Assembly: GCF_000265405.1 (NCBI RefSeq)
Contig: NC_018010.1
Location: forward strand, 992,001 to 1,056,000
Direction: 5' to 3'
Origin: Belliella baltica DSM 15883
GTDB taxonomy: Bacteria; Bacteroidota; Bacteroidia; Cytophagales; Cyclobacteriaceae
Length of the DNA: 64,000 bases
The translations under genes and the position numbers were made by a program. The stretch's first letter is position 1, and each line of letters begins with the position of its first letter. The notes beneath the pieces were generated by a model. It was not told the DNA's origin. It saw only the letters and a program-made list of their open reading frames with translations, and did no database searches. Below are positions 1 through 15,406 of the stretch, one piece after another.

Positions 1-498
1 AGGTAAGAAATTTTTTAGAGCCTTAAAACAGATAAACTCAAACTCTTTTGTTAATTCTGGTTGAAACAAATTGAAAAGACTCAATGAAGAAGAAAATAAC
101 AAGAAAAAATAAAGCTTATTTCTTAATGTCAATTCGGCTATCTCTTTAACAATTATTTTATTTGAATCTCTTATTAAAAAAGGATAATCATTACCATACA
201 ATTGCTCTCTTTCCAAGATTAGTCGAAAAATGTTCTCCACAAAAGTTTGGTTTTCGTCATTTCCTTCTGCTTGGTCTGAATCTTTTTCTTTTTGATGGAT
301 CAATCCTTCATCTTTAAATCTATCTAAAATATCAGTAACCGAAATATATGTGCCATTGGAAAAAACAGAGACCACTTCAACATAATCGGCATATATATGC
401 AATAAATGTTTTGCTGGATTCCCAGTCAGCCCAGTAGATTCTTTTAACTGAATAGAAATTTTTGAAAAATAAGAATCAAGTTTTTCTTCAAAGCTCAT
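1..498 (-). CDS. Unknown protein, cut by left edge
   Basis: An open frame of 166 codons begins with ATG at 498 and continues beyond base 1 without a stop. Its start overlaps the last 11 bases of the ParB-like gene upstream, so the two are probably translationally coupled. The visible part is acidic and mostly helical in appearance, with a hydrophobic phenylalanine/leucine stretch near residues 128-140. I recognise no domain. Its place directly after the ParB-like gene at the edge of a phosphorothioation locus suggests a part in the same island, but nothing in the sequence shows a function. Confidence 0.7.
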   Translation of the reverse strand, partial: MSFEEKLDSYFSKISIQLKESTGLTGNPAKHLLHIYADYVEVVSVFSNGTYISVTDILDRFKDEGLIHQKEKDSDQAEGNDENQTFVENIFRLILEREQLYGNDYPFLIRDSNKIIVKEIAELTLRNKLYFFLLFSSSLSLFNLFQPELTKEFEFICFKALKNFLP

Positions 499-1588
499 CT
501 TTCTCGTCCTCCCTATCTTGTAAAGTTCTAGCAATTTTTGTAGCCAAGGATCTAATGTTTTTGACGTATTCTATGACTTCAGCTTCAGTTATTGTGACCT
601 TGATTACCAGTCTATCTGCGTGTTCTAAAGCATTTAATGCACTATGAATTGAATTCATAAATTGTTGATCAAGTTCCCCTGTTAATTCTCGAGCCACTTC
701 CAAAGAAACACCTTCTTGATCAAATGCCTTAAAAGCAACAGGATGACCTATAACCCTATTTAGAACAGTCAAACTTTCACTGTCACCAATCAATCGGGTT
801 CTGTTCTGATCATTTTTTTCAAACAACCAATGGATCCATTTTTTGAGATTTCCAAGGTTGATAGAGGTAGAATAATCGTCTCGGTCATCTGTCAAATCCA
901 CACCTAGGAATTCACAAATATTTGCCCTTGAGAGACTATCCGCTATATAGTTGAAGTAAAATGAGGTGTCATCAAGATCTTTTATTTTAAAAAATTTCTC
1001 ATCTTCTATCATCTTATAGATTTGGTATCCCACAAGCAGCCTTTTGACATAATCTTTTCTGCTTCCTATACTCTTAGCAAGTTCACGTGATGCCAAATTT
1101 AAAGAAAGTTCAAAAGAGGAAGTTTGCCAAAGGTCATATAAATATTTTGCCTTCTCCAATAACTTCCATTCCTTTATACCTGTAATATGTCTATATCCTA
1201 AGTAGTTATAAATATCTTCTTCTTTTGAAAAAACCAAGCAAGGTATTTCATCCGGGCGAAATTCTGTTTCATCTATTACTTGATTGACTTTTGCTTTCTG
1301 AACTTCCGCAAGACCTGGATTTGATAAAAGCTTGAGAGCTGAAAGCCTCCTATTACCTTCTACTACCTTGAATTTTTCATCTGAATCTAAAACAACCAAA
1401 AGTTGTTCACCAGGAAAAAAATCATTCTTACCAATAGCCAACATTAATTCAATCAATGATGCGTCCAACAACATGTATTCAAGAATTTCCTTTTCGGATT
1501 TCCCCTGAAGTGATTTAGGTAATCTAGGATTATTAGGATCTAATTTCAATTGATCCAAAGGGATGATTCTATATTCGGGCTTTTCCAT
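488..1588 (-). CDS. ParB/Sulfiredoxin-fold N-terminal domain protein
   Basis: The N-terminus has the ParB-type nuclease/CTPase fold signature: a DPNNPR motif near residue 20 and VVEGNRRLSALK near residue 80, which are the usual substrate-loop motifs. The remaining roughly 250 residues are alpha-helical and unassigned. A TTG 12 bases further upstream could also start the frame, but ATG at 1588 is more likely. It is divergent from the cysteine desulfurase gene and overlaps the next gene by 11 bases. DndB of classical Dnd systems is also a DGQHR/ParB-like DNA-binding regulator, so this gene might play a similar role here; that is inference, since I see no DGQHR motif. ParB-like proteins of this type are common in defence islands. 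Confidence 0.75.
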   Translation of the reverse strand: MEKPEYRIIPLDQLKLDPNNPRLPKSLQGKSEKEILEYMLLDASLIELMLAIGKNDFFPGEQLLVVLDSDEKFKVVEGNRRLSALKLLSNPGLAEVQKAKVNQVIDETEFRPDEIPCLVFSKEEDIYNYLGYRHITGIKEWKLLEKAKYLYDLWQTSSFELSLNLASRELAKSIGSRKDYVKRLLVGYQIYKMIEDEKFFKIKDLDDTSFYFNYIADSLSRANICEFLGVDLTDDRDDYSTSINLGNLKKWIHWLFEKNDQNRTRLIGDSESLTVLNRVIGHPVAFKAFDQEGVSLEVARELTGELDQQFMNSIHSALNALEHADRLVIKVTITEAEVIEYVKNIRSLATKIARTLQDREDEKDEL

Positions 1589-1752: not shown

Positions 1753-2919
1753 ATGCAAAATAATTTAATTTATCTAGATAATAATTCAACCACTCCTTTA
1801 GACCCGAGGGTTCTTGAATCTATGATGCCCTATTTGACAACAACGTTTGGAAATGCTTCAAGTAACCACATTGCCGGTGTGATGGCTAATCGCGCTGTAA
1901 ATTCAGCAAGGGAAAAAGTAGCAAACCTAATTAATTCTGACCCACATGAAATTATTTTCACTTCTGGAGCAACAGAGGCCATTAATCTTGCAATTAAAGG
2001 CATTGTAGAGCAAAACCAAGATAAAGGAAACCATATTGTTACGGTGTCCACAGAGCATCCAGCAGTTTTAGATACTTCCAAGTACTTAGAATCAAAAGAT
2101 GTGGAGATAACTTATTTGCCTGTAGATAAATTTGGGTTGGTCGATTTAGCTGAAGTAGAAAAGGCTATCCGCAAAGATACGATACTTGTATCAGTGATGC
2201 TGGTCAACAATGAAACGGGGGTGATTCAACCCATCAAAGAAATCGCTGAATTAGCACATCAAAAAGGAGCCTTTTTCATGACTGATGCCACCCAAGCTGT
2301 TGGAAAGATGAAAGTTAGTGTCAATGAAATGGGCATTGATATCATGGCGTTTTCTGGACATAAATTTTATGGTCCGAAAGGTGTGGGAGGGCTTTATTTA
2401 AGGAGTAGAAGACCATATAAGGTAAAACTAGAATCTCTTATTCACGGTGGAGGGCATGAAAGGGGAGTAAGAAGTGGGACTTTAAATGTACCTGGAATTG
2501 TTGGTTTAGGCGTAGCAGCCGAAATATCCATGAAGGAAATGGAAGCAGACCAAGAAAGGATTGGCGATCTAAGAGATCAATTGGAAAAAACTTTTCTCGG
2601 AATGCCTGACACTTTTCTAAATGGACATCCCAAAAAAAGGCTATACAATGTCTCTAATATTTGTTTCAAAGGAGCTGATGCGGATGCAATTATAGCTGGA
2701 CTGGAAAATATTGCCGTTTCTAATGGTTCTGCTTGTAGCTCGATTAAAGTTGAACCATCCCATGTTTTGACGGCTATGGGATTGAGTGAAAGTGAAGCTT
2801 ATTCGAGTTTGAGGCTGAGCTTAGGGCGATTTACTAATTATTCAAATATTGATATCTCAAAAACCAAAATAATAAAGGAAATACATACTATAAAAAATTT
2901 TTCATCATTTTTAGAATAA
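1753..2919 (+). CDS. dndA: Cysteine desulfurase of the Dnd system (DndA/IscS-like)
   Basis: This is a class V PLP aminotransferase of 388 residues, the usual length for IscS/NifS/DndA. It releases sulfur from L-cysteine as an enzyme persulfide and would hand it to DndC. Visible features are the LDNNSTTPLDPRV start, the SGATEAIN phosphate-binding loop near residue 71, the PLP lysine in SGHKFYGPKG (K204) and the catalytic cysteine in SNGSACSS (C328). It lies on the opposite strand to the dnd operon and ends 6 bases from its last gene. A chromosomal IscS could have the same sequence features; the assignment to DndA rests on location. Confidence 0.9.
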   Translation: MQNNLIYLDNNSTTPLDPRVLESMMPYLTTTFGNASSNHIAGVMANRAVNSAREKVANLINSDPHEIIFTSGATEAINLAIKGIVEQNQDKGNHIVTVSTEHPAVLDTSKYLESKDVEITYLPVDKFGLVDLAEVEKAIRKDTILVSVMLVNNETGVIQPIKEIAELAHQKGAFFMTDATQAVGKMKVSVNEMGIDIMAFSGHKFYGPKGVGGLYLRSRRPYKVKLESLIHGGGHERGVRSGTLNVPGIVGLGVAAEISMKEMEADQERIGDLRDQLEKTFLGMPDTFLNGHPKKRLYNVSNICFKGADADAIIAGLENIAVSNGSACSSIKVEPSHVLTAMGLSESEAYSSLRLSLGRFTNYSNIDISKTKIIKEIHTIKNFSSFLE

Positions 2920-2925
2920 CAATAG

Positions 2926-3870
2926 CTATAAATCCCGACTTTCTAAATATGAAGGATAATATTTATAAGTGTTGAAATAATTTTCTTTATGAGCCTTAGG
3001 GACAAAATCAATTTCCGAATTAATAACAAAGTTTTCCTCTGTAGAAGGCAATAATTGAGTCATTCTATGATACTCCATTGAAGTTATGATTGGATAACTA
3101 ATACACACAGGTTCAACATCATTTGTTACGAAATTATAAGAGTGGAATTTTAATTTATTAAATTCATTTTCCTGACTCTTTAAAATAAAAATGCCTCCAA
3201 ACGTATACATAGGAGCGTCATCTTTATAAGTAAAGTTAAATATTTGTTTGAAAATGAGACGATCCTCTTCTTTTTTGGTCGAATAATCATTTACTATCAC
3301 ATCCTCAATTACATTTATTATCATTTCTCTTATCAAAATATGGCTTTTCTTAGATTCTAAATACTCTGGGGTTAAATAGTCAGGAACTTTATCTCCAAAT
3401 TCATCCTGAAAACTTTTTTTCTCGGTTTGTTCAAAGTCTCTTCTAAGTGATAATACCAAAAAACTCCAAGGCTTGGCTTTATGACAGCAAGTTTCAATAT
3501 CTTGAAACATGAAATTCTGTAATGATTTATCATAATCTAGCCAGACAATTGATTTTTTCTTCCAAGGCAATTTGTTAAGTACTTGATAAGAATATCCAGG
3601 ACGAATCACAATACAACTAAAGGGTTTATTATATTCACACCTCTTAATATTCAATTTATCGGAATTACCTTCTATACTGATCATATCAGTTATACTTAAT
3701 TCCCGGTGAATTAATTTAAAATCAGAGAAAAAAGATGCTCCGAACCCAATATATTGGTATTGATCACAATTTGAAGGAATGCACACTTCTTTAAATACAT
3801 CAAGAAGCATCTTTCGTTCAATTGACTTAGAGGGTCTTAAGCTATAGTTTATTTTTCTATCACTACTCAT
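2926..3870 (-). CDS. Unknown 314-aa protein, last gene of dnd operon
   Basis: I do not recognise this family securely. The N-terminal half looks like a Rossmann or methyltransferase-type fold: a glycine-rich stretch YIGFGASFFSDF near residue 41, an acidic strand end MISIE about 20 residues later, and a VWLDYDK strand near residue 128. It has several cysteines, including a CC pair near residue 147. Its start overlaps the end of the upstream GHKL ATPase gene by 8 bases, so the two are very probably a functional pair. A role as DNA-modifying or sensing partner of that ATPase is inference only. No transmembrane segment or signal peptide is visible. Confidence 0.8.
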   Translation of the reverse strand: MSSDRKINYSLRPSKSIERKMLLDVFKEVCIPSNCDQYQYIGFGASFFSDFKLIHRELSITDMISIEGNSDKLNIKRCEYNKPFSCIVIRPGYSYQVLNKLPWKKKSIVWLDYDKSLQNFMFQDIETCCHKAKPWSFLVLSLRRDFEQTEKKSFQDEFGDKVPDYLTPEYLESKKSHILIREMIINVIEDVIVNDYSTKKEEDRLIFKQIFNFTYKDDAPMYTFGGIFILKSQENEFNKLKFHSYNFVTNDVEPVCISYPIITSMEYHRMTQLLPSTEENFVINSEIDFVPKAHKENYFNTYKYYPSYLESRDL

Positions 3871-5212
3871 AGTTCAATTCCTTCATTTCTACAAAGTAAA
3901 AAAAAGTTTTTTCACCAGCATCGCCATTTGTTGAAACTTTTAAATGTTTTTTCACCCTATTCAAAACATCCTTATCGACTCTATAAGATACCAGTGCTTT
4001 GTCATCTCCAAAATCTCTTTTCTTAATAATTGGAAACTTAAACTCTTCGGTTAAATCTTGCTTTTCTTGCTGATATGCAACAATATCTACTTGCATAGAA
4101 TCATCTACCACAAATTGACGTTGTTCTGCATTATCTAATCTATTGAGATCAGTTAAAACAGACCTCATTGCGAAAATCATTTTATTCCTTGTTTCTTTAA
4201 AAATTGTTGAATTAACATCTATACCCCATTTTGTTGTTGTCATTGGGAGTTTTGTAGGGTCATCAGAAGAAAAGAAAACTATACCTCTAAACATTGCCAC
4301 TTTATTATGAAATTTCTGTACACCTGAATCATCATAGTAATTCTTTCCTCCTTCCCAACCAGTAAGATTTGTCTTATCTCTTTCTACCATCAATCTATCA
4401 TTACAGTAAATATACCAACCAGCTAAATTTGGATTAGGCTCGCCTATTCCAGCAAATATCTTAACATTTACCCCACTTATATCATCTGTAAAATAGTAAG
4501 GTTTCAAATCTTCTGAAACCAATAGTTGAATTGGCTTAGATTTAAGTTCTATTTTGTTAAAGAATATTTTTAAGCCACTTTCAAGAGTATAGTTTAGTGT
4601 ACGTTCAATCTCGCTTATCATCCTGTTTTTAAAGGAGGTTAATGAGAAATCTAATTTAACCGCATCATTAAGATTTGTAACTTTAATATATGTCCCATCT
4701 GATTCCAATAGAGGAGAATGTAATCCTTCTTCAGTAACTTCTCCATTTACGTCGTGAAAATCAAATTCCCATTTTCCTACTTCATCTTGCCATTTAGCGA
4801 CATCTTCTTCAACAATAAAATGGTCTGCATCACACTTAGATTCTACCACAAAATAATTTCCTAACTTAAATAATGCTCTTTTCATTCCAACCCCAAATCT
4901 CCCTACTAATCCTTTCCCCTGTTCACTACTCATATCAGTAGGTCTACCAAACTTAAAGGCATGTTCATTTGCAGCCTTCTTACTAAAGCCTCCACAATTA
5001 TCACTAATAATAAATTCATTTTCATTTACTACTATGTCAATTCTAAATGAACTATACGGAATTTCAGCCAATGACTTCTCCATGACAGTTTTTGCACCAT
5101 CTACTGAATTATCAATTAAATCAATAATAGCTCTTTCCAAAGGAATGTCTTTAGTCAACATATGTATAAAGAATTCCTTTGTTGGTTCTGCATCAAATTT
5201 TCCTTTTGCCAT
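3863..5212 (-). CDS. GHKL (MORC/Hsp90-like) ATPase, second copy in dnd operon
   Basis: The N-terminal 115 residues carry the Bergerat ATP-binding fold: N-box DLIDNSVDG near residue 31, G1 box ISDNCGGF near residue 69, and G2 box GRFGVGMKRA near residue 104. This arrangement without a phospho-acceptor histidine domain is that of MORC, Hsp90 and MutL-like ATPases, not of sensor kinases. The C-terminal part, including a short basic segment around residues 400-435, is unassigned. The gene sits 5 bases after the small dnd-associated gene and overlaps the 314-aa gene. Such ATPases act as ATP-driven clamps in anti-phage systems, so a role in sensing or restricting unmodified DNA is likely but not shown. 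Confidence 0.85.
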   Translation of the reverse strand: MAKGKFDAEPTKEFFIHMLTKDIPLERAIIDLIDNSVDGAKTVMEKSLAEIPYSSFRIDIVVNENEFIISDNCGGFSKKAANEHAFKFGRPTDMSSEQGKGLVGRFGVGMKRALFKLGNYFVVESKCDADHFIVEEDVAKWQDEVGKWEFDFHDVNGEVTEEGLHSPLLESDGTYIKVTNLNDAVKLDFSLTSFKNRMISEIERTLNYTLESGLKIFFNKIELKSKPIQLLVSEDLKPYYFTDDISGVNVKIFAGIGEPNPNLAGWYIYCNDRLMVERDKTNLTGWEGGKNYYDDSGVQKFHNKVAMFRGIVFFSSDDPTKLPMTTTKWGIDVNSTIFKETRNKMIFAMRSVLTDLNRLDNAEQRQFVVDDSMQVDIVAYQQEKQDLTEEFKFPIIKKRDFGDDKALVSYRVDKDVLNRVKKHLKVSTNGDAGEKTFFYFVEMKELNYE

Positions 5213-5217
5213 ATTAG

Positions 5218-5619
5218 TTAATCCATTAAAACCATCTCAACCAAATTATCTAAAGGCTTCCCTGGGTTATTTACAATTTCTTCCACCACATAAACAATAC
5301 CCCCGTTAGCATAACCCTGAGCTATATCCAGAACCTTTCTATTGTTCAATAAATTTAGTAGATTTTTTTCTTTCGCAAAAGCGATAGCAATCAAGACAGG
5401 CACATCGACTTTCTCTTCAAAAACATCCGAACTGAAAATATCCTTTGAAGCAGTTATTTCTTCAAAGGCATTGTATTTCTGTCCCATACAGGCAGCTAAC
5501 ATGAACAAATCCTTCATAGTCTGAAAAGGATAGTGGTCCGGATTTTCAGAACCTCTTTTCACCAGTTTCTCATAGGTTTCATGCTTATCCTTATCGATAT
5601 AGATCCTTAAATTCTTCAT
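5218..5619 (-). CDS. Small dnd-associated protein (dnd system-associated protein 4-like)
   Basis: A 133-residue protein starting MKNLRIYIDKDKHETYEKLV. It has a basic, ribbon-helix-like N-terminus, a central hydrophobic helix (FMLAACMGQKYN near residue 40) and a C-terminal helix. The pattern matches what I know of the TIGRFAM family called dnd system-associated protein 4, a small protein found only with dnd genes and of unknown role. It lies one base after the SMC-like gene and 5 bases before the GHKL gene. The size and the N-terminal pattern also recall DndE, so it may be a DNA-binding adaptor for its ATPase neighbour (inference). Confidence 0.65.
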   Translation of the reverse strand: MKNLRIYIDKDKHETYEKLVKRGSENPDHYPFQTMKDLFMLAACMGQKYNAFEEITASKDIFSSDVFEEKVDVPVLIAIAFAKEKNLLNLLNNRKVLDIAQGYANGGIVYVVEEIVNNPGKPLDNLVEMVLMD

Positions 5620-5620
5620 A

Positions 5621-7624
5621 TCATTTTAATTCTGTTATGCTTGTTTGTCTCATTGTCTCATCAAAATGCATTTCATAAACATGGTTTGCATATTTTGATA
5701 GGTTTAGCCGTGTCGTTTGATTCCATTCAACATCTGGAATCAAAAATAAGATAGTCTGTTCCGCCAATTTGGGTAAACGTTCGGAAATAGCAGCATGAAC
5801 GGAATGATCCAAACGACTAAACGGCATATCTATTACTAGCGGTGGGTTTTTCCTTGATACTCTTGAAATGGCAGTGATAAAGGCTAAACTCAAACACTGT
5901 GATTGTCCCATAGAAAGCCTTTGTAAGGCTCTGTTTCCATTGGAATCCAAAACTTCTAGTGAGTAATCTTTACTCAAAGCTACATGGTAAGCTGAAGAAG
6001 AAACTACAAATTTTTTAAACTCCTCGATGGTCAAATCCTCCACTGTCTTTCTACTTTTCTCAGCGAAATCATCATAAAGTGCTCCTAAAACATCCCCTGC
6101 CTTCTTCGCTAATTCACTCCTTATATGAAGGTAATTAGCTTCTTCTTGCATTTTTCCAAGAGCTTTTCGTTCCACATCAAGTTCTCTCAATTTCTGCTCT
6201 GAATTGGTTCTTTCTTCTTGTTTGGTACTTAGCTCAGCTATTAATTCATCATCCTTATCTTTTCTCTGTTTTCTTTCATTCATTAAGGTTGCAACATTCT
6301 CTATTGGAAGAGATTCCAACTCTTGGTCGATTTCCTGAATTTGATACACAAGGCTTTTCTCTTCTTTCTCAAGTTCTATGGCTGTATTCTCTTTTAACCC
6401 CAAATTATCAATGGAATTATTTATGATATCCTCAGCATTATTTAAATCATGGAATAGGTCAATTAGTTTATCCTCTTCACCAGACCTGTGTTTTTCTTTT
6501 TCAAGTCTGGAAATTAATTTTTCGAAAATTGGATTTCCTGGTTTAGCTTCAAACTGTGTCCCGCATATGCATTCCTCTTGGTCAAACAGATCATGAAAAA
6601 ATGTTTCTCTTATATGTTTAGGAATTTCGCCTTTAGCTCTTTTTTCTCTCAGTAATTCTTTTAACTCAATCAAGGGCTCTTTAGCTAAAATTAATGAAGC
6701 CTTAGCTGCATCCTCCCTCATTTGGTTTTTGATAACCTTAATATTTTCTTTAGTTTGAGTTAACTCCTTACTTAATTGGTTTTTCCTTTCTTGAAGCGTA
6801 CTTGTTTCAGGGAGATCTTTTAATTTAGAGTCTATTAATGCAATTTGATCATTGATTGCCAATCGTTCTTTTTTGATATCACTTATTCGAGTTTTTAAAC
6901 CATTTTGAAATTTTAACTCTTGATTATAAGCTTCCTCAACTTTTCCTAACTCTCCTTTGGCCGCCTTTGCGGCTTTTTTGCTATACCATAGAGCTGTCTC
7001 TTCCAAATGGTCATAAGCATTTCTGACAATTTCCAAATCAACAACCCTATAGATTGCATCTTGAACTTCTTGACTATTTCCTGGTTTGGCAAGGTTATGT
7101 ATCCGGTCACCATCAAATAAAAAGTAGCTTTTAACATTGTTGGGCAAGATTTCATCCAAAAATGTTCGGGTATATGGGATGGTAATATGATCTCCTTGAG
7201 GTGTGATTTCTTTGAGGATATGATTTCTATCGACAAGGGTCGCAGTCAGTTTATGGTCTAATTCCTTTTTTGGTTGAAGTACTAATGAAAGTCTAATATA
7301 AAACTCTCTTTTACCACTTTCATCTTCGTGCTCGAAATAAAGTGTAGCAGACATATTAAGCCTTGAATTGTCATTAGCAGCTTCACTTAATGCTGATTCA
7401 TTAAGGAAATCAATAATCTCTCTTTCCTTTATTTTTTTTAGGTCTTTCTCAAATTCCTCTCCATACAACGCCCAATTTATGGCATCAAAAAGTGAGGTTT
7501 TCCCAAAGCCAGTACCGCCAATGAAAATAATCAATGGTTTTTTTTCATCAGTTTCAAGGTTAATAGGTCCAACTTTGCCATAGTAAGAAGCAAAATTCTC
7601 TAATTCAATTTTTTGAAACTTCAT
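5621..7624 (-). CDS. SMC/Rad50-like ATPase, DndD paralogue with zinc-hook-like motif
   Basis: A 667-residue ABC-type ATPase of the SMC/RecF/DndD kind. It has Walker A GGTGFGKTS near residue 36, a long heptad-rich coiled coil on both sides of an EECICGTQF motif near residue 350 (two cysteines like a Rad50 zinc hook), the signature LSMGQSQCLSLA near 570 and Walker B LVIDMPFSRLD near 596. A GTG 18 bases upstream could be the start, but the ATG chosen gives the usual short N-terminus. It overlaps the 75-aa gene. It is distinct from the true DndD in the same operon, which lacks the hook cysteines. It may act in DNA end sensing or restriction. Confidence 0.85.
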   Translation of the reverse strand: MKFQKIELENFASYYGKVGPINLETDEKKPLIIFIGGTGFGKTSLFDAINWALYGEEFEKDLKKIKEREIIDFLNESALSEAANDNSRLNMSATLYFEHEDESGKREFYIRLSLVLQPKKELDHKLTATLVDRNHILKEITPQGDHITIPYTRTFLDEILPNNVKSYFLFDGDRIHNLAKPGNSQEVQDAIYRVVDLEIVRNAYDHLEETALWYSKKAAKAAKGELGKVEEAYNQELKFQNGLKTRISDIKKERLAINDQIALIDSKLKDLPETSTLQERKNQLSKELTQTKENIKVIKNQMREDAAKASLILAKEPLIELKELLREKRAKGEIPKHIRETFFHDLFDQEECICGTQFEAKPGNPIFEKLISRLEKEKHRSGEEDKLIDLFHDLNNAEDIINNSIDNLGLKENTAIELEKEEKSLVYQIQEIDQELESLPIENVATLMNERKQRKDKDDELIAELSTKQEERTNSEQKLRELDVERKALGKMQEEANYLHIRSELAKKAGDVLGALYDDFAEKSRKTVEDLTIEEFKKFVVSSSAYHVALSKDYSLEVLDSNGNRALQRLSMGQSQCLSLAFITAISRVSRKNPPLVIDMPFSRLDHSVHAAISERLPKLAEQTILFLIPDVEWNQTTRLNLSKYANHVYEMHFDETMRQTSITELK

Positions 7625-7832
7625 CTTCTTTTTGCTTATCACCTAAATTAAGTTGAGTACTTCTGGCAACCCCTTCAATAATATCTCTAATTTTTTGCCA
7701 AGGGAAATTCACCCTTTCGGTAGATCGATAACTAATTTCGACTCTAAAGACACCTCTAATCACGTCTCTTAATTTTTCGTCTTCCACTTGATTAAGGACT
7801 TCTTCCAAACGACCAATATTACTTTTTTTCAT
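7605..7832 (-). CDS. Unknown 75-aa protein in dnd operon
   Basis: A small charged protein (starts MKKSNIGRLEEVLNQ) predicted to be mostly helical, with a central FRVEISYRSTERVNFPW strand-like part. It starts 3 bases after the helicase-nuclease gene stop and its end overlaps the start of the SMC-like gene by 20 bases, so it is firmly inside the operon and probably translated. I know no family for it. It could be an accessory subunit or inhibitor of either neighbour; nothing in the sequence decides. Confidence 0.65.
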   Translation of the reverse strand: MKKSNIGRLEEVLNQVEDEKLRDVIRGVFRVEISYRSTERVNFPWQKIRDIIEGVARSTQLNLGDKQKEDEVSKN

Positions 7833-7835
7833 ATT

Positions 7836-9980
7836 TTATTGGTCTGTGATATCTAGCAAATCCAATTGGTTTGCCATTGTAAATAACTGGTTCATAGAGT
7901 CAAATTGATTTATTGCCATGCTCGAAAATTCTTGTACTCTTTTATATTCTTTGGTAAATGCACTTTTTACAGCTGAATAGGATACACTTTTTCTTCCTTC
8001 TGCAATAAGCCTTTGAGGAGGAATGGACACTAAATCATATATGACTGCATGTTCTTTTCCTGGATGTTTTCTTAAAACTCTTCCTCTTCTTTGCACAAAC
8101 TCACGAGGATTACCTGAAGAGGCTAAAAAATAAGCTACTCGAGTAGGAGGCACATCCACACCTTCATCCAGGCATTTCATTGCCATTAAAGATTGGATTT
8201 TTTGATCACCAAATTCCTTAAGCAATTCTCTTCTTTCCTTTCTACTTTGTCTTGAGGTAAATTCATGAAGTTTTATTTTGAAAGTTTTTCCCAAAAGCTC
8301 CTTGACTGGCCCGAAAATCTGATCTCCTGCATAAAACAAACTAAAATCTATCGGTTTATTTTGAATATTTTCCCTTAGCCATTCTATTTTATTGAGTGAA
8401 TTGTTTTGAATCCTCGCACGTCTAATAGCCAGTTTTTCAAGTTTTTCGACACTATCAATATCTTTACGACTGGCTAATCTCGCAATTTGAGTAGTTAAAT
8501 CAACGTAGTTTTCGAATTCCTCTTCTGTAAGTTCTACCGGAATCGGATGATAGTAATATGGTGTTAGAAATTTCCCAATTGCATCTTTAATAGGTAAACT
8601 AAATACAATCTTATCAAAATAATCCATTAATGCCAATGTACCCTCGGGATCTCCATGCCGTTCAGGTGTAGCACTTAGCCCTAATCTAAATGGACACAAT
8701 TCAGGGAGAAGTTTTCTCATTGAATTCGAACCTGCATAATGGGCTTCGTCTATGATTAGCAATAACTCTTCGATACATGGATTTACAATTTTTTGGAAAG
8801 TTTCTGAAGAAAAAGAGGCATTGGTTGTAATAAGAACGACACGGTTTATTCGTTTCCTCCTAAATAGTTGAGCCTGCCTTGCAGCATGCTCTTCCCACAA
8901 GCTTCTGGATTCCCCAACCAAAATATTGTCAAGGCCAAATTTCAAAGCTTCTTCACACCATTGTTCGGCCAAATGGATAAATGGACATGAAATAATAATA
9001 AACAGTCTTTCTTTATTCCTGAGTAGTTCCCATATGGCAGCCAATGCAGTAAAAGTTTTACCTGTGCCAGTAGCCATGGCCAACATTCCTTTATAGCCAT
9101 TGTTTTTCCATGCTGAAATCGCATTCTCTTGATAAGCCCTTAACTTAGGTAATTCTGATACACTTTTTGTTTTTCGGGAAATAGGTTCAAGCTTTTGAAC
9201 TAGATCTTGGATTCTTTTTTTAAAAGATTCTGATAATCTGTAATCTCCCTCTAATTCCCGCATTAATTCTAGTTCCTCTTCAACAAGAGATTCAATATCA
9301 TTAACAGGAAATTCTTGTTGAATAATTGCTTTAATACTCTCAATGGGTATTTTTTCAACAACCTCGGATAATCCGTTCCAGGTTTTATAAAATAGGTAGT
9401 TAAAATGTTGAATTCTATCTTTGCTTACTTGGTTTTCTGCCCAGGAATAATCGCAAATAAGTGACTCGATGTTGTTAAATATAGCGTTAGCTGAAAAATT
9501 AATAGACCCAGTAAATACTAATTCATTGCCAATTAGATCTTTAAAAATCCCGAATTTTTGATGCACTATACCAACTCTATTGTTTTTTGGTACGGTTGCC
9601 ATGATTTCTATCCGATTGGTAGCTATAAGCCAAGAAATGCAATTGAAAAAATGTTTATCTGATTTAGATAGCGTCTTTTTTAACTTCAAAATATCATTTA
9701 GGATTTTTTTTTCAAAAGTTGAATCAATTATTTTTTCTTGACCTTTCAATATAGCTATCTTATCTGATTCTGATAAAACATCATTGATAATGATTCTCAT
9801 TCTACCGCCATTTTTGATAAAATAAGCAAAACCAATTGAAAGTGCTCTAAAACCACTTGAACTGAAATATCCAAGCCCTAAATCAAAAGAATTACTATTA
9901 ACCAATGCTTCAATAAAAAACTCAGCAGGCTCGTGTTCACCAGAGGCATATACAGATTTGAATTCAGCATTTTGTAACAT
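7836..9980 (-). CDS. PLD-nuclease/SF2-helicase fusion, probable phosphorothioation-linked restriction enzyme
   Basis: A 714-residue fusion. Residues 1-210 form a phospholipase-D type domain with one HxK(x4)D...GSxN motif (HQKFGIFKD at 140, TGSINFSAN at 158), which suits a nuclease. Residues 275-680 form a DEAD/DEAH translocase: Q-like region LRAYQENAIS at 280, Walker A MATGTGKT at 302, DEAH at 411, motif III LSATP near 430 and motif VI QRRGRVLRK near 640. It resembles the family annotated as DNA phosphorothioation system restriction enzyme. One base separates it from the preceding GHKL gene. It is the only obvious nuclease in the operon, so it is the likely effector. Confidence 0.85.
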   Translation of the reverse strand: MLQNAEFKSVYASGEHEPAEFFIEALVNSNSFDLGLGYFSSSGFRALSIGFAYFIKNGGRMRIIINDVLSESDKIAILKGQEKIIDSTFEKKILNDILKLKKTLSKSDKHFFNCISWLIATNRIEIMATVPKNNRVGIVHQKFGIFKDLIGNELVFTGSINFSANAIFNNIESLICDYSWAENQVSKDRIQHFNYLFYKTWNGLSEVVEKIPIESIKAIIQQEFPVNDIESLVEEELELMRELEGDYRLSESFKKRIQDLVQKLEPISRKTKSVSELPKLRAYQENAISAWKNNGYKGMLAMATGTGKTFTALAAIWELLRNKERLFIIISCPFIHLAEQWCEEALKFGLDNILVGESRSLWEEHAARQAQLFRRKRINRVVLITTNASFSSETFQKIVNPCIEELLLIIDEAHYAGSNSMRKLLPELCPFRLGLSATPERHGDPEGTLALMDYFDKIVFSLPIKDAIGKFLTPYYYHPIPVELTEEEFENYVDLTTQIARLASRKDIDSVEKLEKLAIRRARIQNNSLNKIEWLRENIQNKPIDFSLFYAGDQIFGPVKELLGKTFKIKLHEFTSRQSRKERRELLKEFGDQKIQSLMAMKCLDEGVDVPPTRVAYFLASSGNPREFVQRRGRVLRKHPGKEHAVIYDLVSIPPQRLIAEGRKSVSYSAVKSAFTKEYKRVQEFSSMAINQFDSMNQLFTMANQLDLLDITDQ

Positions 9981-9981
9981 A

Positions 9982-11583
9982 TTAATTTCTCAATTCTTTA
10001 CTAAAATCAACCTTAAATAATTTATTGACTGTGTACTTATAGGTTTCTCTAAAGGTATTTAAATCATTAAATGAAATCGTAACTGTGCTTCGCTTATGAA
10101 CTAGATCACACCGGAGTCTATAAAAATGCTCAATCTTTTTCCATTGTTCTTTGTTAATTCTGACTTTACATCCCTTTATTTCATTATGAACCTCAGAACG
10201 ATTCTTCATAATAGCAGCTAACCGTCCTTCGCTAAATGTTTTTCCTGAATCATTTACCAGATAGTCTTTAAATGCTATTTCGAGACCACTGTCTAGCAAT
10301 AGCATAGATATTCTAAAATTTTGCTCAAGCTTCAAGGATATGATTTGTTCAACTGCTATCTCCGTTTCATAAGAGCCTACTATCCATGGCTTAGATTGAG
10401 CAATAGCCCTATTGTTTCTCTTCAATATATCAGCATATTTCCTCTTTTTTGGACTTCTTGGAACAGCGGGTAGATGTATCCTTACATTTCTAGAAACATC
10501 ATTGAGAGCTTCTGTTTTTACTATGCCTGTTTTATACTGAAAAATTTTTTCTTCCCATTCACCAGACCAATTCCTAGACATAGAGGCATAAGTAAACAAA
10601 ACTCGTTCAATATGGTCCATTATTTCCCTGAATGTCTTATGCTTGAAGTCGATTTCAGATTTACTACTATTCCATGGCATCAACTCTACTGTACCATGTA
10701 GTTTAACTAAGACTCTTGCAAGTGACAAAGAGGGGTGTGGTTTCCCTACACGTGGAGGTTTATAACCAACCTCAGACCCCTTATATCCCCTGGCAATTAA
10801 TCTGTCGTTACAATAAAAATAAACTCCATATTCCTCACTTGAAGATTCTTCACGGTGAGATTTTGTTAACCCACCTTGGATTTCAACGTCAATTCTGCCT
10901 CTGTCTCCAAAATCGATTGGTCCTTTAAAGTGTTTCGGTTCAAAACCAGGAGGGTAAGACCAATTGTCAAAAGTCTTGGGTTTAATTTCTTTTTCGTTAA
11001 GAATAATATCTAATCCAACTGTATCTAAAAATAAAGCATATGTAGCACCCAAATGTTCTATAAGATTAGACTCATTTTCTGGGAGTATTGGATCTCTTAA
11101 CTTAATGAGCTCAATCATTGTAGAATTCTCCTCAATAGGATCTACTTCATAAGCTTTCAAAAACCAATTTTCTTCATCCGATATCCATGCGTCATCAATC
11201 TCAACCAATATTGTTTTTTCATTGGAGTGTCTGGTAAATATCTTTACATCTTCAGCGAGAGCTATTACCGCTCTTTTAGAGCCAACGCCAAACACTCCTA
11301 TTATTTCATCATTATAATTTTCCCGTGATTGACCAGGACTAACAATTAATTGAATATCATCTTCTTTAATACCTCCACTATTATCTACAACTTGAATAGT
11401 TTGCCTTTCATAATCCAAGTCAATCTTAATTATCAAATCTCTAGGCCTTTGATTAAAAATCCAATTGTCAATGGCATTATCAATAAGCTCACACAAAGCC
11501 AATTCCAAATGGTAGTCTACAATTATGGAAAGATATAAACGCTTTGAAGGAATTGCTTCTATATCATTTATGAATTTTTTCAT
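9982..11583 (-). CDS. GHKL (MORC-like) ATPase, first copy in dnd operon
   Basis: A 533-residue protein with a Bergerat ATPase domain: N-box ALCELIDNAIDN at residue 29, G1 box VVDNSGGI at 65, and G2 box GVFGVGSKRA at 96. A S5/transducer-like middle region follows (FYCNDRLIARGYKG near 255), then a linker rich in basic residues (PRSPKKRKY near 380) and a C-terminal helical domain of about 130 residues with an RCDLVHKRS motif, similar to the HEPN/Swt1-like RxxxxH style, which is suggestive only. It follows dndE by 11 bases. It is clearly different in sequence and length from the second GHKL protein of the operon. Likely an ATP-driven DNA clamp in the restriction branch. Confidence 0.85.
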   Translation of the reverse strand: MKKFINDIEAIPSKRLYLSIIVDYHLELALCELIDNAIDNWIFNQRPRDLIIKIDLDYERQTIQVVDNSGGIKEDDIQLIVSPGQSRENYNDEIIGVFGVGSKRAVIALAEDVKIFTRHSNEKTILVEIDDAWISDEENWFLKAYEVDPIEENSTMIELIKLRDPILPENESNLIEHLGATYALFLDTVGLDIILNEKEIKPKTFDNWSYPPGFEPKHFKGPIDFGDRGRIDVEIQGGLTKSHREESSSEEYGVYFYCNDRLIARGYKGSEVGYKPPRVGKPHPSLSLARVLVKLHGTVELMPWNSSKSEIDFKHKTFREIMDHIERVLFTYASMSRNWSGEWEEKIFQYKTGIVKTEALNDVSRNVRIHLPAVPRSPKKRKYADILKRNNRAIAQSKPWIVGSYETEIAVEQIISLKLEQNFRISMLLLDSGLEIAFKDYLVNDSGKTFSEGRLAAIMKNRSEVHNEIKGCKVRINKEQWKKIEHFYRLRCDLVHKRSTVTISFNDLNTFRETYKYTVNKLFKVDFSKELRN

Positions 11584-11594
11584 TTTATTAAATG

Positions 11595-11978
11595 CTAAGT
11601 TAAACCCCCTTCAATTCTTTGAGTCAAAAAATCAATACCCGAACCTGAGAAGTTCTTGAATTCTTTTTCAATCATTTCTAGCCCATCATCAATATGCATT
11701 TTGACATATCGAGCTAAATCCTTGTCTGAAATATGAATATTGTAATGTACACAAAGTATAGCCATGTAAAAGTCTCCATAATCTCCAAACAGCACCTTAT
11801 ATGTATATTCTTTACCTTGTGAATCATGGACCTCAGATAGGTTCACTTTATGCTCATTTCCTAATGAATAGGCAAAGGCTATCCTGGCAATCACATTTTC
11901 AGCGCCTAAGTTAAGTTTTCGAGTAAGTTGAACTACCCGCTCCTTATTTTCTTTTGATGTTTTGATGGTATTAAACAT
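11595..11978 (-). CDS. dndE: DNA sulfur modification protein DndE
   Basis: A 127-residue protein with the characteristic DndE core LTRKLNLGAENVIARIAFAYSL near residues 18-39. DndE binds nicked double-stranded DNA and is needed, with DndC and DndD, to insert sulfur into the sugar-phosphate backbone. The length matches the family (about 110-130 residues). Its start overlaps dndD by 8 bases, the usual coupling in dnd operons. Confidence 0.92.
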   Translation of the reverse strand: MFNTIKTSKENKERVVQLTRKLNLGAENVIARIAFAYSLGNEHKVNLSEVHDSQGKEYTYKVLFGDYGDFYMAILCVHYNIHISDKDLARYVKMHIDDGLEMIEKEFKNFSGSGIDFLTQRIEGGLT

Positions 11979-14109
11979 TGGCTACAAATTTTAAAGAATT
12001 GAATAACTCTGTTGGCCTGCATTCTTCAAAGTACGATTTGTCTTTGGTAGAATTTTTTATCAAATAAGCCTTTGAGACCAATGGGTAAAGGTTTTGATAT
12101 TCCTTTTGTGTTAGTTCTTTTTCAAGAAGTGGTAGTAAAATCACCTGCTCTGAGATTGTAGGATAAAAATCCTTTATAATATTGGTGGCATGTTGATGGT
12201 CAAACTTCTGAAGTGGACTATCTATGAAAATAGGGAATTTAATATTAGATTCTTCTACCAAAGCCTTCAGAAGTGCAGTGGCATATAATTGCTGCTCCCC
12301 TTTGGATAGACCATCCTTATTGATAACCCTTCCATCTGAATCATAAAATTCAATATCCAAGAGATCTTTTTCCAATATCACTTCCACTCTTTCAATAAAC
12401 TGCTTTTTGTGCATCAGCTGCTGGAGTTCTGAAAGAATCTTAGATTCAAGAGATTCCTTTTTCTTATCTTTTAGTTTTTTAAGAAAAACAGTAAGTTCCT
12501 TGATAAGCCGGGCAGCCGTTTCATCTTTCTGCACATCTGCCAATGCGATATTTACTTTCTTACTAAGTTCGGATTGCCTCTTATACAATATTTTTAAGTC
12601 ATTCAAATTAGTTTCTGACCGGACTTTCAACGAGATGATTTCTTCTTCAATTTTAGCCAATTCTTCATCTATCTTCATTTTAGCCTTTCTAATCTCTTGA
12701 ATTACTAGGTCGTCTTCTTTTGATTCTGCATTTGAAAGTTTATTTACGATTATTCTCATAGTGCTTTGCTTGACTCTCATATCCTGTGTCAATGCCCTGA
12801 ATCTTTCCGAATAAGAAGTTTCAATGTTGTCAATTAAAGATCTAAACCGATTAGTTTGTTCTTTATTAAATTCTAAAAGAGGTTTGAAATTTTTATCACC
12901 TGATGAAAGGAGCTCAGAAAGAAGCACTTTAGACAATTTCTCCTTAGCTTCCTTTGATATTGCTAATTCTTCTTTCCTCTCCTCAATTATTCTCTCAATG
13001 GCATTTATCTTGGTTTTTATAAATTCAGCCGAAAGTTCAGATGCTTGGTTTTCTTCCTCCAATAAAAGCTGGTTGTTAACTCGTTGCATTTTTTTAAATG
13101 CAATTGCAAAAGGGGCTAGCTCTATGAAATCCTTGAATTGTTGATTAGCTACTTGATTTTCTCGCGAAGCATTTTCCTTTAATAGTTTTAGGTCGTTTAA
13201 TTCTTCCAAAGTAATAGTAGAACCTTCCCTGATTAACTTTTCCTGTAGCTTTTCTGATTCCTCCCGCTTTCTTAGAAACTCTTCTCTTTTGCTTTCAATA
13301 GTTTCCAAAAAATATTTTTGCAGTTTTTCTGCACTTTGAATCTCCTTGTTGACTTTCTCCAGTTGAAGTTTATCCTCACCAGAAGCTTGACTGTTTCTTA
13401 GTCTAAGTCTTAAATTTTCAAGATTTCGTTTTAAATCTTCATATTTTTTGATTCCCAAAACTTCGGAGTAAGCTCGGCTTAGCTCTCTTTTTTCATCCAC
13501 GGTTCTAATTTCTGCTAACGATACAATTTTCTCTGCATCAAAGAAGAAAAACTTTGCAATCTCTTTGGGCATTATAAAATCATGAATAAAAATCTCTGAC
13601 CCTACTTCTTTGGTTAATTCATTTACTCTACCATCAATCAGGATTTCAACTTTTTCATCCTCTGTCTCTACATTGAATGATCTTTTAATTTCTACCTTGT
13701 TACATGGTACAGAGGGAATAAAGATGTCAGAAATCAATATGCTTACACTAAAGGTATTGAGCAAGTCTAATTGCTCTTGAATATTGGATTTTTCCTTCCC
13801 AAAACTTATTTCTAATTCGTTTTTCAATTTTTCTTTTGAAGGACTTTCCCAAGTAGCTTTGTTTATAGTTTTCCTACAAAAACGCTTATAGCCTCCACTT
13901 TCATAAATTTCTCTTTTGTACCTATAATCCACATCGACCATAAGTTTTCCGTAAAAACACCAGACCAATGAAGTGAGAAAGGTTGTTTTACCAAAACCAT
14001 TGTTGCCAGCGATAACAGTAACATTTTTTTCAGGTGCATGAAGGAATGAAACCTCGTTAACGCCTTGGTAAATTCTAAAATCCTTTAATGTAATTTTATC
14101 TATAAGCAT
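11971..14109 (-). CDS. dndD: DNA sulfur modification ATPase DndD
   Basis: A 712-residue SMC-like ATPase. Walker A is GNNGFGKTT at residue 35, followed by LTSLVWCFYGKL, typical of DndD. Long coiled coils span roughly 220-580. The ABC signature is LSKGEQQLYATAL near 601 and Walker B FPIFIDSPLQKFD near 624. Its ATPase activity is thought to supply nicking or conformational work for phosphorothioate insertion. It starts one base after dndC ends and overlaps dndE. No hook cysteines are seen in the coiled coil. Confidence 0.93.
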   Translation of the reverse strand: MLIDKITLKDFRIYQGVNEVSFLHAPEKNVTVIAGNNGFGKTTFLTSLVWCFYGKLMVDVDYRYKREIYESGGYKRFCRKTINKATWESPSKEKLKNELEISFGKEKSNIQEQLDLLNTFSVSILISDIFIPSVPCNKVEIKRSFNVETEDEKVEILIDGRVNELTKEVGSEIFIHDFIMPKEIAKFFFFDAEKIVSLAEIRTVDEKRELSRAYSEVLGIKKYEDLKRNLENLRLRLRNSQASGEDKLQLEKVNKEIQSAEKLQKYFLETIESKREEFLRKREESEKLQEKLIREGSTITLEELNDLKLLKENASRENQVANQQFKDFIELAPFAIAFKKMQRVNNQLLLEEENQASELSAEFIKTKINAIERIIEERKEELAISKEAKEKLSKVLLSELLSSGDKNFKPLLEFNKEQTNRFRSLIDNIETSYSERFRALTQDMRVKQSTMRIIVNKLSNAESKEDDLVIQEIRKAKMKIDEELAKIEEEIISLKVRSETNLNDLKILYKRQSELSKKVNIALADVQKDETAARLIKELTVFLKKLKDKKKESLESKILSELQQLMHKKQFIERVEVILEKDLLDIEFYDSDGRVINKDGLSKGEQQLYATALLKALVEESNIKFPIFIDSPLQKFDHQHATNIIKDFYPTISEQVILLPLLEKELTQKEYQNLYPLVSKAYLIKNSTKDKSYFEECRPTELFNSLKFVANV

Positions 14110-14110
14110 C

Positions 14111-15406
14111 TTATTGGCTTTTTACAAATTGATCAAGTCTGTTTTCCAAGTCGTTTTGTAAGCCCTTCGCTTTGACCATAATTGTCTTGGCCTTTTGAAG
14201 CTTCAAAAGTTCATTTATCAACTGATAATCTTCAGGATGCTCCGTACATGATTCTTTCAAAATTTCCTTTTCAAAAATCAAGTGATCTTTGAAGTCACGG
14301 TCTGTTAATTCAGTTCCATAAACCTTATTATAAATATCAGCTACACTGAAATTGAAATGGTTATCCCTATACCAAGTTACTTGAATTGCAACCAATTCTT
14401 GGTAATTGATTAAGCTAATCTCAGGCTCAGTTTCATTAACTTCTTTCTGAGCCATGAGTAACGTTTCTAAAATTAATGCACGTTTATGTATAAAATATGG
14501 ACCAGGGCCATCTGACCCATCTCTCCGGGTAGGTTGCCTCCATTCTGGATGATTTCTGTAGGTTACCAACATGTCTCGCAACTCTGCCATGGGCTCCATC
14601 CATTCTTCACCATTCTGAATTAAAGCATCCATAGATTTATCTTTACTAACCACTGTACAAACCCAACAACCAAATCTGCTTTTTCCACATGATGGAGTGG
14701 TATCATCTATTACTAGAGGACAATCACCACTGTTTGCATTTCTGTACAATGCATTTAGCATTTTATTATTTGCTCCCCAAGGTGATGGAACTTGATTTAG
14801 ATATTGCCATAATTCGGTTACCAAAACATCTTTAATAGGAGCATACACAAACGCATTTGGAAGAACATGTTTCCTTAACCTTTGACCATCTACCTCATGT
14901 TTCTTCATGCTTCGGGCTCTATTTGCACTTTCTTCACTCCTGGTTCCTAGCAAAATGATGGCCTCACCTACTTCACTGATTTTATTTTTTATAAACTCAG
15001 TAGTCGGATTGATTTTTAATCTTTCTGTACACCATCTAAATGCATTATTTGGTGCGGGGTAACCTTTACCTATCAGATTTACCCAAAAACTATCTTCAAG
15101 TTTTGGTGTTGTTTTTACCACAAAAACCGGCATAGATTGCTCAAAAGCAGCCTTTTCTATTTTTTCAAGAACTTCTTCCGTATAATTAAGAATTTTTGGA
15201 TTTTCTACTAGAGTGTTATTACAAACAACATATAATTCTCGTTTTCTCAATTCCTGTGGAAGCTGTCTAACACTGTTCCAAACTAGTTGTAAAAGCATTG
15301 TAGAATCCTTACCTCCACTAAAGCCAATAATCCAAGGGCGATTCCCATCATCTTCAAAATATTGACTAACTATCTCTTCTTCTAATTCCTTTAGATTGAG
15401 TAACAT
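14111..15406 (-). CDS. dndC: DNA phosphorothioation sulfurtransferase DndC
   Basis: A 431-residue PAPS-reductase-like protein. The PP-loop GFSGGKDST lies at residue 28. Four cysteines suited to a 4Fe-4S cluster are in GDCP (229) and SCGKSRFGCWVC (240, 247, 250). DndC activates DNA or transfers sulfur received from DndA. The YGTELTDRDF region near 345 is typical of the C-terminal half. It is first in the ten-gene minus-strand operon. It is somewhat shorter than the roughly 500 residues of Streptomyces DndC. Confidence 0.93.
   Translation of the reverse strand: MLLNLKELEEEIVSQYFEDDGNRPWIIGFSGGKDSTMLLQLVWNSVRQLPQELRKRELYVVCNNTLVENPKILNYTEEVLEKIEKAAFEQSMPVFVVKTTPKLEDSFWVNLIGKGYPAPNNAFRWCTERLKINPTTEFIKNKISEVGEAIILLGTRSEESANRARSMKKHEVDGQRLRKHVLPNAFVYAPIKDVLVTELWQYLNQVPSPWGANNKMLNALYRNANSGDCPLVIDDTTPSCGKSRFGCWVCTVVSKDKSMDALIQNGEEWMEPMAELRDMLVTYRNHPEWRQPTRRDGSDGPGPYFIHKRALILETLLMAQKEVNETEPEISLINYQELVAIQVTWYRDNHFNFSVADIYNKVYGTELTDRDFKDHLIFEKEILKESCTEHPEDYQLINELLKLQKAKTIMVKAKGLQNDLENRLDQFVKSQ

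What the first reader, a model, noticed from the sequence alone, without database searches (positions are those of the whole stretch)
2926..15406. Phosphorothioation operon with a non-canonical restriction half
dndC, dndD and dndE are followed in one tight operon by two GHKL ATPases, a PLD-helicase, a second SMC ATPase and small unknown proteins. No DndF/G/H-like gene is visible. The gaps are a few bases or overlaps, so the unit probably works together. The organisation suggests a restriction branch that uses MORC-like and SMC-like ATPases to guard modified DNA.
Basis: partly seen in the sequence, partly recalled or inferred. Interest (0 to 1): 0.85.

Follow-up and report, generated by a model that had tools for sequence, protein, structure and literature searches.

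The report
MORC ATPases join sulfur-tagging defence operon
A bacterium's ten-gene antiviral operon joins a known DNA sulfur-tagging system and its known blocking partner (PbeABCD) to two extra MORC-type ATPases, one with a probable RNA-cutting tail and one paired with an unstudied methyltransferase-like protein; that second pair also turns up on viral contigs and in other defence loci beside quite different DNA-tagging enzymes.

Summary
The operon is real: ten minus-strand genes, 15406 to 2926, every junction between a 20-nt overlap and an 11-nt gap. The 'non-canonical restriction half' is mostly a known set: the PLD-helicase, 75-aa protein, SMC-like ATPase and 133-aa protein are PbeA-B-C-D, published in 2019. 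No DptF/G/H gene is in the operon.

Unexplained by that are three genes. (1) GHKL1, a MORC ATPase with a probable C-terminal HEPN RNase domain. Its Dnd-linked clade (window plus 8 Bacteroidota loci, 100/99 support) sits with DndCDE beside DptFGH (1 locus), Pbe genes (2) or neither (5). (2) GHKL2, a second MORC ATPase, and (3) MT35 (PF20553), a methyltransferase-like protein. They form a portable pair: the same 4 of 395 genomes have both, and all 19 viral contigs found carry both beside a cytosine-5 methyltransferase; it also sits in DISARM loci. Many GHKL2 relatives, though, show no MT35.

Best reading: Dnd-Pbe extended by two MORC modules that couple DNA sensing to extra effectors. Function is inferred; nothing was tested at the bench.

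The parts
14111..15406 (-). DndC, PAPS-reductase-like sulfurtransferase (431 aa)
   Evidence: TIGR03183 448 bits against cut-off 290.4; PADLOC DndC 495 bits; SGGKDS loop
11971..14109 (-). DndD, ABC ATPase (712 aa)
   Evidence: PADLOC: best model is named PbeC (466 bits), best DndD model 273 bits; TIGR03185 220 bits, under its cut-off of 245.85; Walker A, no CxC; place between dndC and dndE
11595..11978 (-). DndE (127 aa)
   Evidence: Pfam DndE 104 bits against 25; TIGR03184 64.4 bits, under its cut-off of 71.85
9982..11583 (-). GHKL1: MORC-type ATPase with probable C-terminal HEPN RNase domain (533 aa)
7836..9980 (-). PbeA: PLD (HxK) nuclease-like domain plus SF2 helicase (714 aa)
   Evidence: PADLOC PbeA 657.6 bits; TIGR04095 464 bits, under its cut-off of 600; HQK at 140
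7605..7832 (-). Probable PbeB, small protein (75 aa)
   Evidence: No family match; named by its size and its place between pbeA and pbeC
5621..7642 (-). PbeC: CxC-type ABC ATPase (673 aa; likely start ATG 7624)
   Evidence: PADLOC PbeC 1568 bits; CIC motif at 358
5218..5619 (-). PbeD (133 aa)
   Evidence: TIGR04062 dnd_assoc_4 E 3.4e-14, 53.2 bits, under its cut-off of 74.25; position
3863..5212 (-). GHKL2: second MORC-type ATPase (449 aa)
2926..3870 (-). MT35: PF20553 methyltransferase-like Rossmann protein (314 aa), partner of GHKL2
   Evidence: PF20553 E 3.3e-98; GHKL2 on the same strand before it in all 29 other loci where both families were mapped, in one of them 3 kb away
1753..2919 (+). 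Cysteine desulfurase, likely DndA role, convergent with the operon (388 aa)
   Evidence: IscS/NifS/DndA models, TIGR03235 412 bits under its cut-off of 480; SACSS with C328
488..1600 (-). ParB-like protein (370 aa), possible counterpart of DndB
   Evidence: 504 bits to the gene between dndE and GHKL1 in Sinomicrobium L022; PADLOC PD-Lambda-5_A 87 bits over residues 10-165; no Pfam or NCBIfam match over cut-off
1..534 (-). Part inside the window of a 343-aa gene that continues to genome base 991503
   Evidence: 54% identity to the gene after the ParB-like gene in L022
15694..16299 (-). HTH regulator upstream of the operon (201 aa), membership uncertain
   Evidence: HTH_19/HTH_3; 287-nt gap to dndC

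Best explanation
This is a phosphorothioate (PT) defence operon of the known DndCDE-PbeABCD kind with two MORC-ATPase modules added. Step 1 (inferred from families): the desulfurase and DndCDE put PT marks on host DNA. Step 2 (shown by others for the archaeal homologue, inferred here): PbeABCD blocks propagation of unmarked virus DNA. Step 3 (inferred): GHKL1 loads on DNA as an ATP-closed MORC clamp and, on DNA that lacks PT or when Dnd/Pbe is challenged, turns on its C-terminal HEPN RNase, a second layer that can abort infection; it travels with the PT half, not with one restriction half. Step 4 (inferred): GHKL2-MT35 is a ready-made effector pair, borrowed from systems in which it pairs with cytosine-5 or other DNA methyltransferases. 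GHKL2 senses DNA and MT35 acts next to it with a SAM-dependent or SAM-gated activity. In 13 of 19 viral cassettes I saw, by eye, no Vsr or other restriction gene next to the methyltransferase and the pair, so the pair is the best candidate for their restriction half.
For: Dnd and Pbe assignments. Ten genes with junctions from -20 to +11 nt. GHKL1: genome-contig scan gave 64 loci; dnd genes in 8 (L020-L026, L050); on a tree of 53 rows (16 of 69 sequences under 450 aa dropped) the 9 Dnd-linked rows are one clade, 100/99, 100% of bootstrap trees. Directly after DptFGH in L050, Pbe genes in L023 and L024, neither in the stretch held of the other five. A DndB/DGQHR gene within two genes in 5 of 8. 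R491...H496 in 120 of 120 listed homologues and in 57 of 62 locus sequences with both columns aligned; HEPN_RiboL-PSP is the Pfam family hit by most members, 4 of 44, best E 6.9e-4. GHKL2-MT35: same 4 of 395 genomes, adjacent in all 4; viral scans by MT35 (11 loci) and by GHKL2 (15 loci), 19 distinct contigs together, all with the pair and a gene with cytosine-5 methyltransferase motifs; distances covary, Mantel r 0.886, 0 of 2000 permutations, 22 non-redundant pairs, one interrupted pair left out. DISARM context in a Microvirga plasmid and in G165.
Against: No function was measured. GHKL1 is in only 1 (the window) of 9 DndC+DndD loci among 395 genomes, so it is optional. GHKL2-MT35 with Dnd-Pbe was seen only in this window; the 8 other GHKL1-Dnd genomes gave no PF20553 match (no control rang). 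GHKL2 is not tied to MT35 everywhere: the protein search found 3869 GHKL2-like proteins but 89 MT35 relatives, and only 16 of the 119 other listed GHKL2 relatives (13 of 63 on contigs of 10 kb or more) have a longest contig of the same length as a listed MT35 relative (a rough test, lists capped). HEPN matches are under the Pfam cut-off, no PDB HEPN was found by sequence, a comparison with a DUF4145 protein gave nothing, and 5 of 62 locus sequences lack the R/H pair. GHKL2 has Asp where GHKL1 has the N-box Glu, so its ATP turnover may be weak. Vsr-like genes in 6 of 19 viral cassettes could be the nuclease there.
Confidence: 0.45

Rival explanations
1. GHKL1 serves the modification half: with the ParB/DndB-like protein it organises DNA for DndCDE, controlling where and how densely PT is placed, and its C-terminal domain is structural.
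For: GHKL1 occurs with dnd genes beside DptFGH, Pbe or neither and has a DGQHR/DndB gene within two genes in 5 of 8 Dnd loci, with the ParB-like gene between dndE and GHKL1 in a sixth.
Against: Most GHKL1 relatives (55 of 64 loci) show neither dnd nor pbe genes in the stretch held, some of them short, and 57 of 62 locus sequences keep the R/H motif, which fits an effector better than a PT cofactor; most dnd loci lack GHKL1.
Confidence: 0.25
2. The MORC genes are passengers: GHKL2-MT35 (and perhaps GHKL1) landed in the transcription unit within a defence island and act on their own or not at all.
For: GHKL2-MT35 with Dnd-Pbe was found only here; it has no methyltransferase gene of its own in the operon; both families occur in many unrelated contexts.
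Against: Junctions of -20 to +11 nt through all ten genes; open frames; one Dnd-restricted GHKL1 clade.
Confidence: 0.25
3. Plain DndCDE-PbeABCD with nothing new: the GHKL genes are routine R-M accessories as predicted in 2008.
For: Iyer 2008 (PMC2292703) already placed MORCs in R-M operons, a few with HKD-helicases; PbeABCD is known.
Against: Neither PMC6459918 nor PMC10853773 contains the word GHKL, and MORC has 0 occurrences in PMC10853773 (not searched in the other); library searches phosphorothioat+GHKL+Dnd and MORC+DndD gave 0 papers; the 2008 paper has 0 occurrences of dnd and HEPN. Figures and supplements were not seen.
Confidence: 0.05

Closest known systems
DndCDEA-PbeABCD (Xiong 2019, PMC6459918; CxC-DndE system of Rakesh 2024, PMC10853773)
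   Same: Gene set and order DndC-D-E ... PbeA-B-C-D, PLD-SF2 helicase, CxC ABC ATPase
   Different: A MORC gene sits between dndE and pbeA and a MORC-MT35 pair follows pbeD; a ParB-like gene and a 343-aa gene lie further downstream beyond the convergent desulfurase
Prokaryotic MORC ATPases of R-M operons (Iyer 2008, PMC2292703)
   Same: GHKL plus S5 module, MORC S5 motif, setting beside helicases, methylases and Vsr
   Different: PT instead of methylation here; HEPN-like tail on GHKL1; a PF20553 partner is not described in the parts I read (1-3 of 4, no figures)
VcSduA, GHKL-Shedu (PMC12137116, passages seen)
   Same: GHKL ATPase joined to a C-terminal nuclease; that paper shows both sites are needed against phages
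   Different: GHKL1 has no DUF4263 match; its tail is HEPN-like; it sits in a Dnd operon
DISARM with GHKL2-MT35 (Microvirga terrae plasmid NZ_CP102847; G165)
   Same: The same adjacent gene pair
   Different: In Microvirga the pair lies between the MmeI-like gene and drmA; no dnd genes seen there
Pf phage PfAC20 accessory cassette (PP058144)
   Same: ATP-binding protein, MT35-like protein, cytosine methyltransferase in a row
   Different: Cytosine methyltransferase instead of PT genes; its authors list only the methyltransferase, as an incomplete system (PMC11878078, passages seen)
MZA system (MzaB)
   Same: GHKL ATPase in a defence operon
   Different: Only 17 bits against a cut-off of 850 for GHKL2; no other MZA model among the listed matches of the ten proteins

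Membership tests
Dnd phosphorothioation | DndC sulfurtransferase | tested here: met
   TIGR03183 448 > 290.4 bits
Dnd phosphorothioation | DndD and DndE | tested here: met
   Pfam DndE over cut-off, PADLOC DndD/PbeC-class ABC ATPase, gene order; TIGR03185 and TIGR03184 fall below their own cut-offs
Dnd phosphorothioation | PT in DNA | not testable with these tools
   needs mass spectrometry or PT-aware sequencing
DndFGH restriction | DptF, DptG, DptH in the operon | tested here: not met
   none of the ten proteins matches; the same models did match L050
DndFGH restriction | DptH elsewhere in the genome | tested here: inconclusive
   no match in G000, but no control genome rang either; DptF and DptG not searched there
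PbeABCD | PbeA PLD-helicase | tested here: met
   PADLOC PbeA 657.6 bits; TIGR04095 464 bits, below its cut-off of 600
PbeABCD | PbeC ABC ATPase with CxC hook | tested here: met
   1568 bits, CIC at 358
PbeABCD | PbeB and PbeD small proteins in A-B-C-D order | tested here: inconclusive
   order and sizes fit; PbeD 53.2 bits under its cut-off of 74.25; PbeB has no match
PbeABCD | PT-dependent block of virus replication | not testable with these tools
   wet assay needed
MORC ATPase (Iyer 2008) | GHKL ATP-binding residues | tested here: met
   GHKL1 E32, N36, D67 in 119 of 119 ungapped rows, G96/G99/G101 in 120 of 120; GHKL2 has D31 at the E position in all 79 rows of A5
MORC ATPase (Iyer 2008) | S5 motif GhXhhpXXRhl | tested here: met
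HEPN RNase (GHKL1 tail) | RX4-6H motif | tested here: met
   120 of 120 listed proteins; 57 of 62 locus sequences
HEPN RNase (GHKL1 tail) | profile match over cut-off | tested here: not met
   4 of 44 members hit HEPN_RiboL-PSP, best 20 bits against 28.4; the window's own tail hit nothing
HEPN RNase (GHKL1 tail) | HEPN fold | tested here: inconclusive
   model tail is nearly all helical, R/H at the end of helix 478-496; the structure comparison covered residues 1-375 only
SAM methyltransferase (MT35) | SAM-site residues | tested here: inconclusive
   invariant G42, G44, E67 and WLDY in 27 rows, meaning recalled; no PDB relative by profile
Shedu (GHKL type) | DUF4263 nuclease | tested here: not met
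   no such match in GHKL1 or GHKL2
DISARM | drmA/drmB genes | tested here: not met
   no DrmA or DrmB model among the listed matches of the ten proteins

The most novel reading that the evidence does not exclude
GHKL2-MT35 is a chemistry-blind restriction half: a MORC clamp that detects the absence of whatever mark its local modifier makes (5mC beside phage methyltransferases, other methylation beside DISARM or CcrM-like enzymes, phosphorothioate here) and fires a methyltransferase-fold effector instead of a nuclease. With its methyltransferase it would be a three-gene phage-borne defence system that is at present read as an orphan or incomplete methyltransferase.
Probability: 0.2. Interest if true: 0.87.

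Novelty: new variant of a known kind. Interest (0 to 1): 0.6.

Why it matters
How PbeABCD stops viruses without cutting their DNA is open, and how MORC ATPases, known in animals and plants as silencers of mobile DNA, work in bacteria is little tested. Here MORC proteins are wired to a chemically unusual mark that can be switched off by one cysteine change, so their dependence on the mark can be tested directly. The GHKL2-MT35 pair gives a small, separable system (three genes on viral contigs) for asking what MORC senses and whether a methyltransferase-fold protein can be a defence effector; one such cassette in phage PfAC20 was listed in print as an incomplete restriction-modification system.
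Full report
WHAT IS THERE. Ten minus-strand genes run from 15406 to 2926. Junctions along transcription are +1, -8, +11, +1, +3, -20, +1, +5 and -8 nt, taking ATG 7624 as the PbeC start because the PbeC profiles begin at residue 7 of the longer ORF. Family scans give DndC, DndD, DndE, then GHKL1, then PbeA, a 75-aa protein, PbeC and PbeD, then GHKL2 and MT35. Several curated TIGR models match below their cut-offs (DndD, DndE, PbeA, PbeD), and the best PADLOC model for DndD is named PbeC; the PADLOC and Pfam matches and the gene order carry those names. PbeC has the CxC hook (CIC at 358), PbeA an HxK at 140 followed by an Asp whose spacing recurs in three other PbeA proteins, and the desulfurase a cysteine at 328. 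Neither paper contains the word GHKL; MORC was searched only in the second and has 0 occurrences there.

THE TAIL OF GHKL1. Residues 390-533 are mostly helical. R491 and H496, an RX4H pair as in HEPN RNases (motif recalled), are invariant in 120 of 120 listed homologues; the residue after R is Cys in 102, Ser in 8, Asn in 7 and Gly in 3. The 120 are the best of 856. Of 62 locus sequences with both columns aligned 57 keep the pair; L053, L068, L071 and L077 have lost it, and a second ORF in L055 has K/H. HEPN_RiboL-PSP is the Pfam family hit by most members (4 of 44, best E 6.9e-4), below its cut-off. I rate the HEPN assignment likely but not proven.

GHKL1 GOES WITH DND. A scan of genome contigs with GHKL1 gave 64 loci. 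Eight carry dndC-D-E: a Bacteroidales MAG, Pedobacter, Sinomicrobium, Fulvivirga, two Mucilaginibacter, Flaviaesturariibacter and Flavobacterium. A ninth (L066, archaeal) has PbeA-C-D but no dnd genes in the stretch held. On a tree of 53 rows (16 of 69 sequences were under 450 aa and dropped, L066 among them) the window and the eight form one clade, 100/99, in 100% of bootstrap trees. GHKL1 directly follows DptF-DptG-DptH in L050 (TIGR03238, TIGR03236, TIGR03237), follows a probable PbeD in L023, stands 4.7 kb from and opposite to DndC-D-E-PbeA in L024, and follows DndE directly in L025; in L020, L021, L022, L025 and L026 neither Pbe genes nor relatives of the L050 DptF, G or H were found in the stretch held. 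A DndB/DGQHR gene is the next or next-but-one gene in L020, L021, L023, L024 and L025. In L022 the order is dndC-D-E, ParB-like, 327 aa, GHKL1; both of these extra genes have counterparts in and beside the window (504 bits; 54% identity), and the window's genome has no DGQHR match of its own. Against ubiquity: among 395 genomes of the phylum sample 13 have DndC, 9 of them with DndD, and only the window has GHKL1 within the stretches fetched.

GHKL2 AND MT35 AS A MODULE. In the same 395 genomes GHKL2 (E up to 1e-20) and PF20553 (E up to 1e-10) hit the same four genomes, G000, G039, G165 and G322, adjacent and same strand in each; if independent, about one chance in 1e9 (395 choose 4). Scanning viral contigs with MT35 gave 11 loci, with GHKL2 15; together 19 distinct contigs (three of them near-copies), and every one has GHKL2 directly before MT35 and a gene with cytosine-5 methyltransferase motifs within two genes. 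One such gene was checked as Dcm and one Vsr neighbour as Vsr; five further Vsr-like genes were named by eye. Over 22 non-redundant pairs the distance matrices correlate at r 0.886 with 0 of 2000 permutations as high; shared descent can add to this. Plasmids: the same two records match both, one with the pair interrupted. In Microvirga terrae the pair lies inside DISARM, between the MmeI-like gene and drmA; in G165 it stands next to a DrmA gene; in G039 and G322 a DNA methyltransferase gene comes right after MT35, adenine-type by models below their cut-offs in G039 and by eye in G322. Pf phage PfAC20 carries ATP-binding protein, MT35-like protein and cytosine methyltransferase in a row; its paper (PMC11878078, passages seen) lists only the methyltransferase, as incomplete. 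PADLOC 2023 had no match for five MT35 proteins (window, L085, L099, L102, L136) and at most a 16-bit MzaB match for four GHKL2 proteins. The tie is looser from the GHKL2 side: the protein search found 3869 GHKL2-like proteins against 89 MT35 relatives, and 16 of the 119 other listed GHKL2 relatives share a longest-contig length with a listed MT35 relative, 13 of the 63 on contigs of 10 kb or more. Contig length is a rough proxy and both lists have limits, but many GHKL2 relatives probably work with other partners.

HOW IT MAY WORK. Shown by sequence: gene content, open frames, module linkage. Shown by others in related systems: PT-dependent block of virus propagation by PbeABCD without cleavage (PMC6459918), need for both ATPase and nuclease in the GHKL-Shedu protein VcSduA (PMC12137116, passages seen). 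Inferred: GHKL1 as a clamp-gated RNase, GHKL2-MT35 as a borrowed effector pair. In 13 of 19 viral cassettes the methyltransferase, GHKL2 and MT35 are the only system genes I could see by eye, so one of the last two should provide restriction if the cassette restricts at all; a Vsr-like gene in L106, L107, L108, L127, L132 and L133 is an alternative nuclease there.

NOVELTY. Dnd, Pbe and MORC-in-R-M are known. New as far as my searches reach (open-licence papers only, no figures): MORC genes inside a Dnd-Pbe operon, the Dnd-bound MORC-HEPN clade, and the recurrent MORC-PF20553 pair across modification chemistries. I file it as a new variant of a known kind.

Noticed in passing
L136:280-3711 (Pseudomonas phage PfAC20, PP058144): Three-gene cassette ATP-binding protein, MT35-like protein, cytosine methyltransferase; published as an incomplete defence system but it looks like a complete set of the kind seen in 19 viral contigs.
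   Followed up: yes
L121:8791-10461 (G355): A different GHKL protein (MzaB/MutL-like, 69 bits) stands right after dndE, in the same slot as GHKL1 in the window; other GHKL genes lie beside Pbe-like genes in L094 and L096.
   Followed up: partly
L053, L068, L071: Three GHKL1 relatives that lost the R/H motif share a two-gene neighbourhood (about 766 and 337 aa) and one branch of the tree: perhaps a separate system.
   Followed up: no
window 488-1600: ParB-like protein whose N-terminal half matches the A protein of PD-Lambda-5 (87 bits).
   Followed up: partly
L020:7332-8822: A RelA/SpoT-domain protein (PF04607, 3.7e-10) lies between dndE and the DndB-like gene in a Bacteroidales dnd locus.
   Followed up: no
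L112:12379-13932, L114:3723-5255 and L026:7504-9075: DndE-like proteins of 517, 510 and 523 aa, four times the usual length; the first two also match DptH weakly (49 and 43 bits), so DndE may be fused to a DptH-like part in some genomes.
   Followed up: no
L098 (Sinorhizobium meliloti plasmid psymA): GHKL2 and a shortened MT35 are 3 kb apart with other ORFs between them that look like an insertion element by eye.
   Followed up: no
window 25133-26475 and 30335-31150; genome 988017-988994: ORFs that read like IS transposases on both sides of the defence genes (by eye, no family scan).
   Followed up: no
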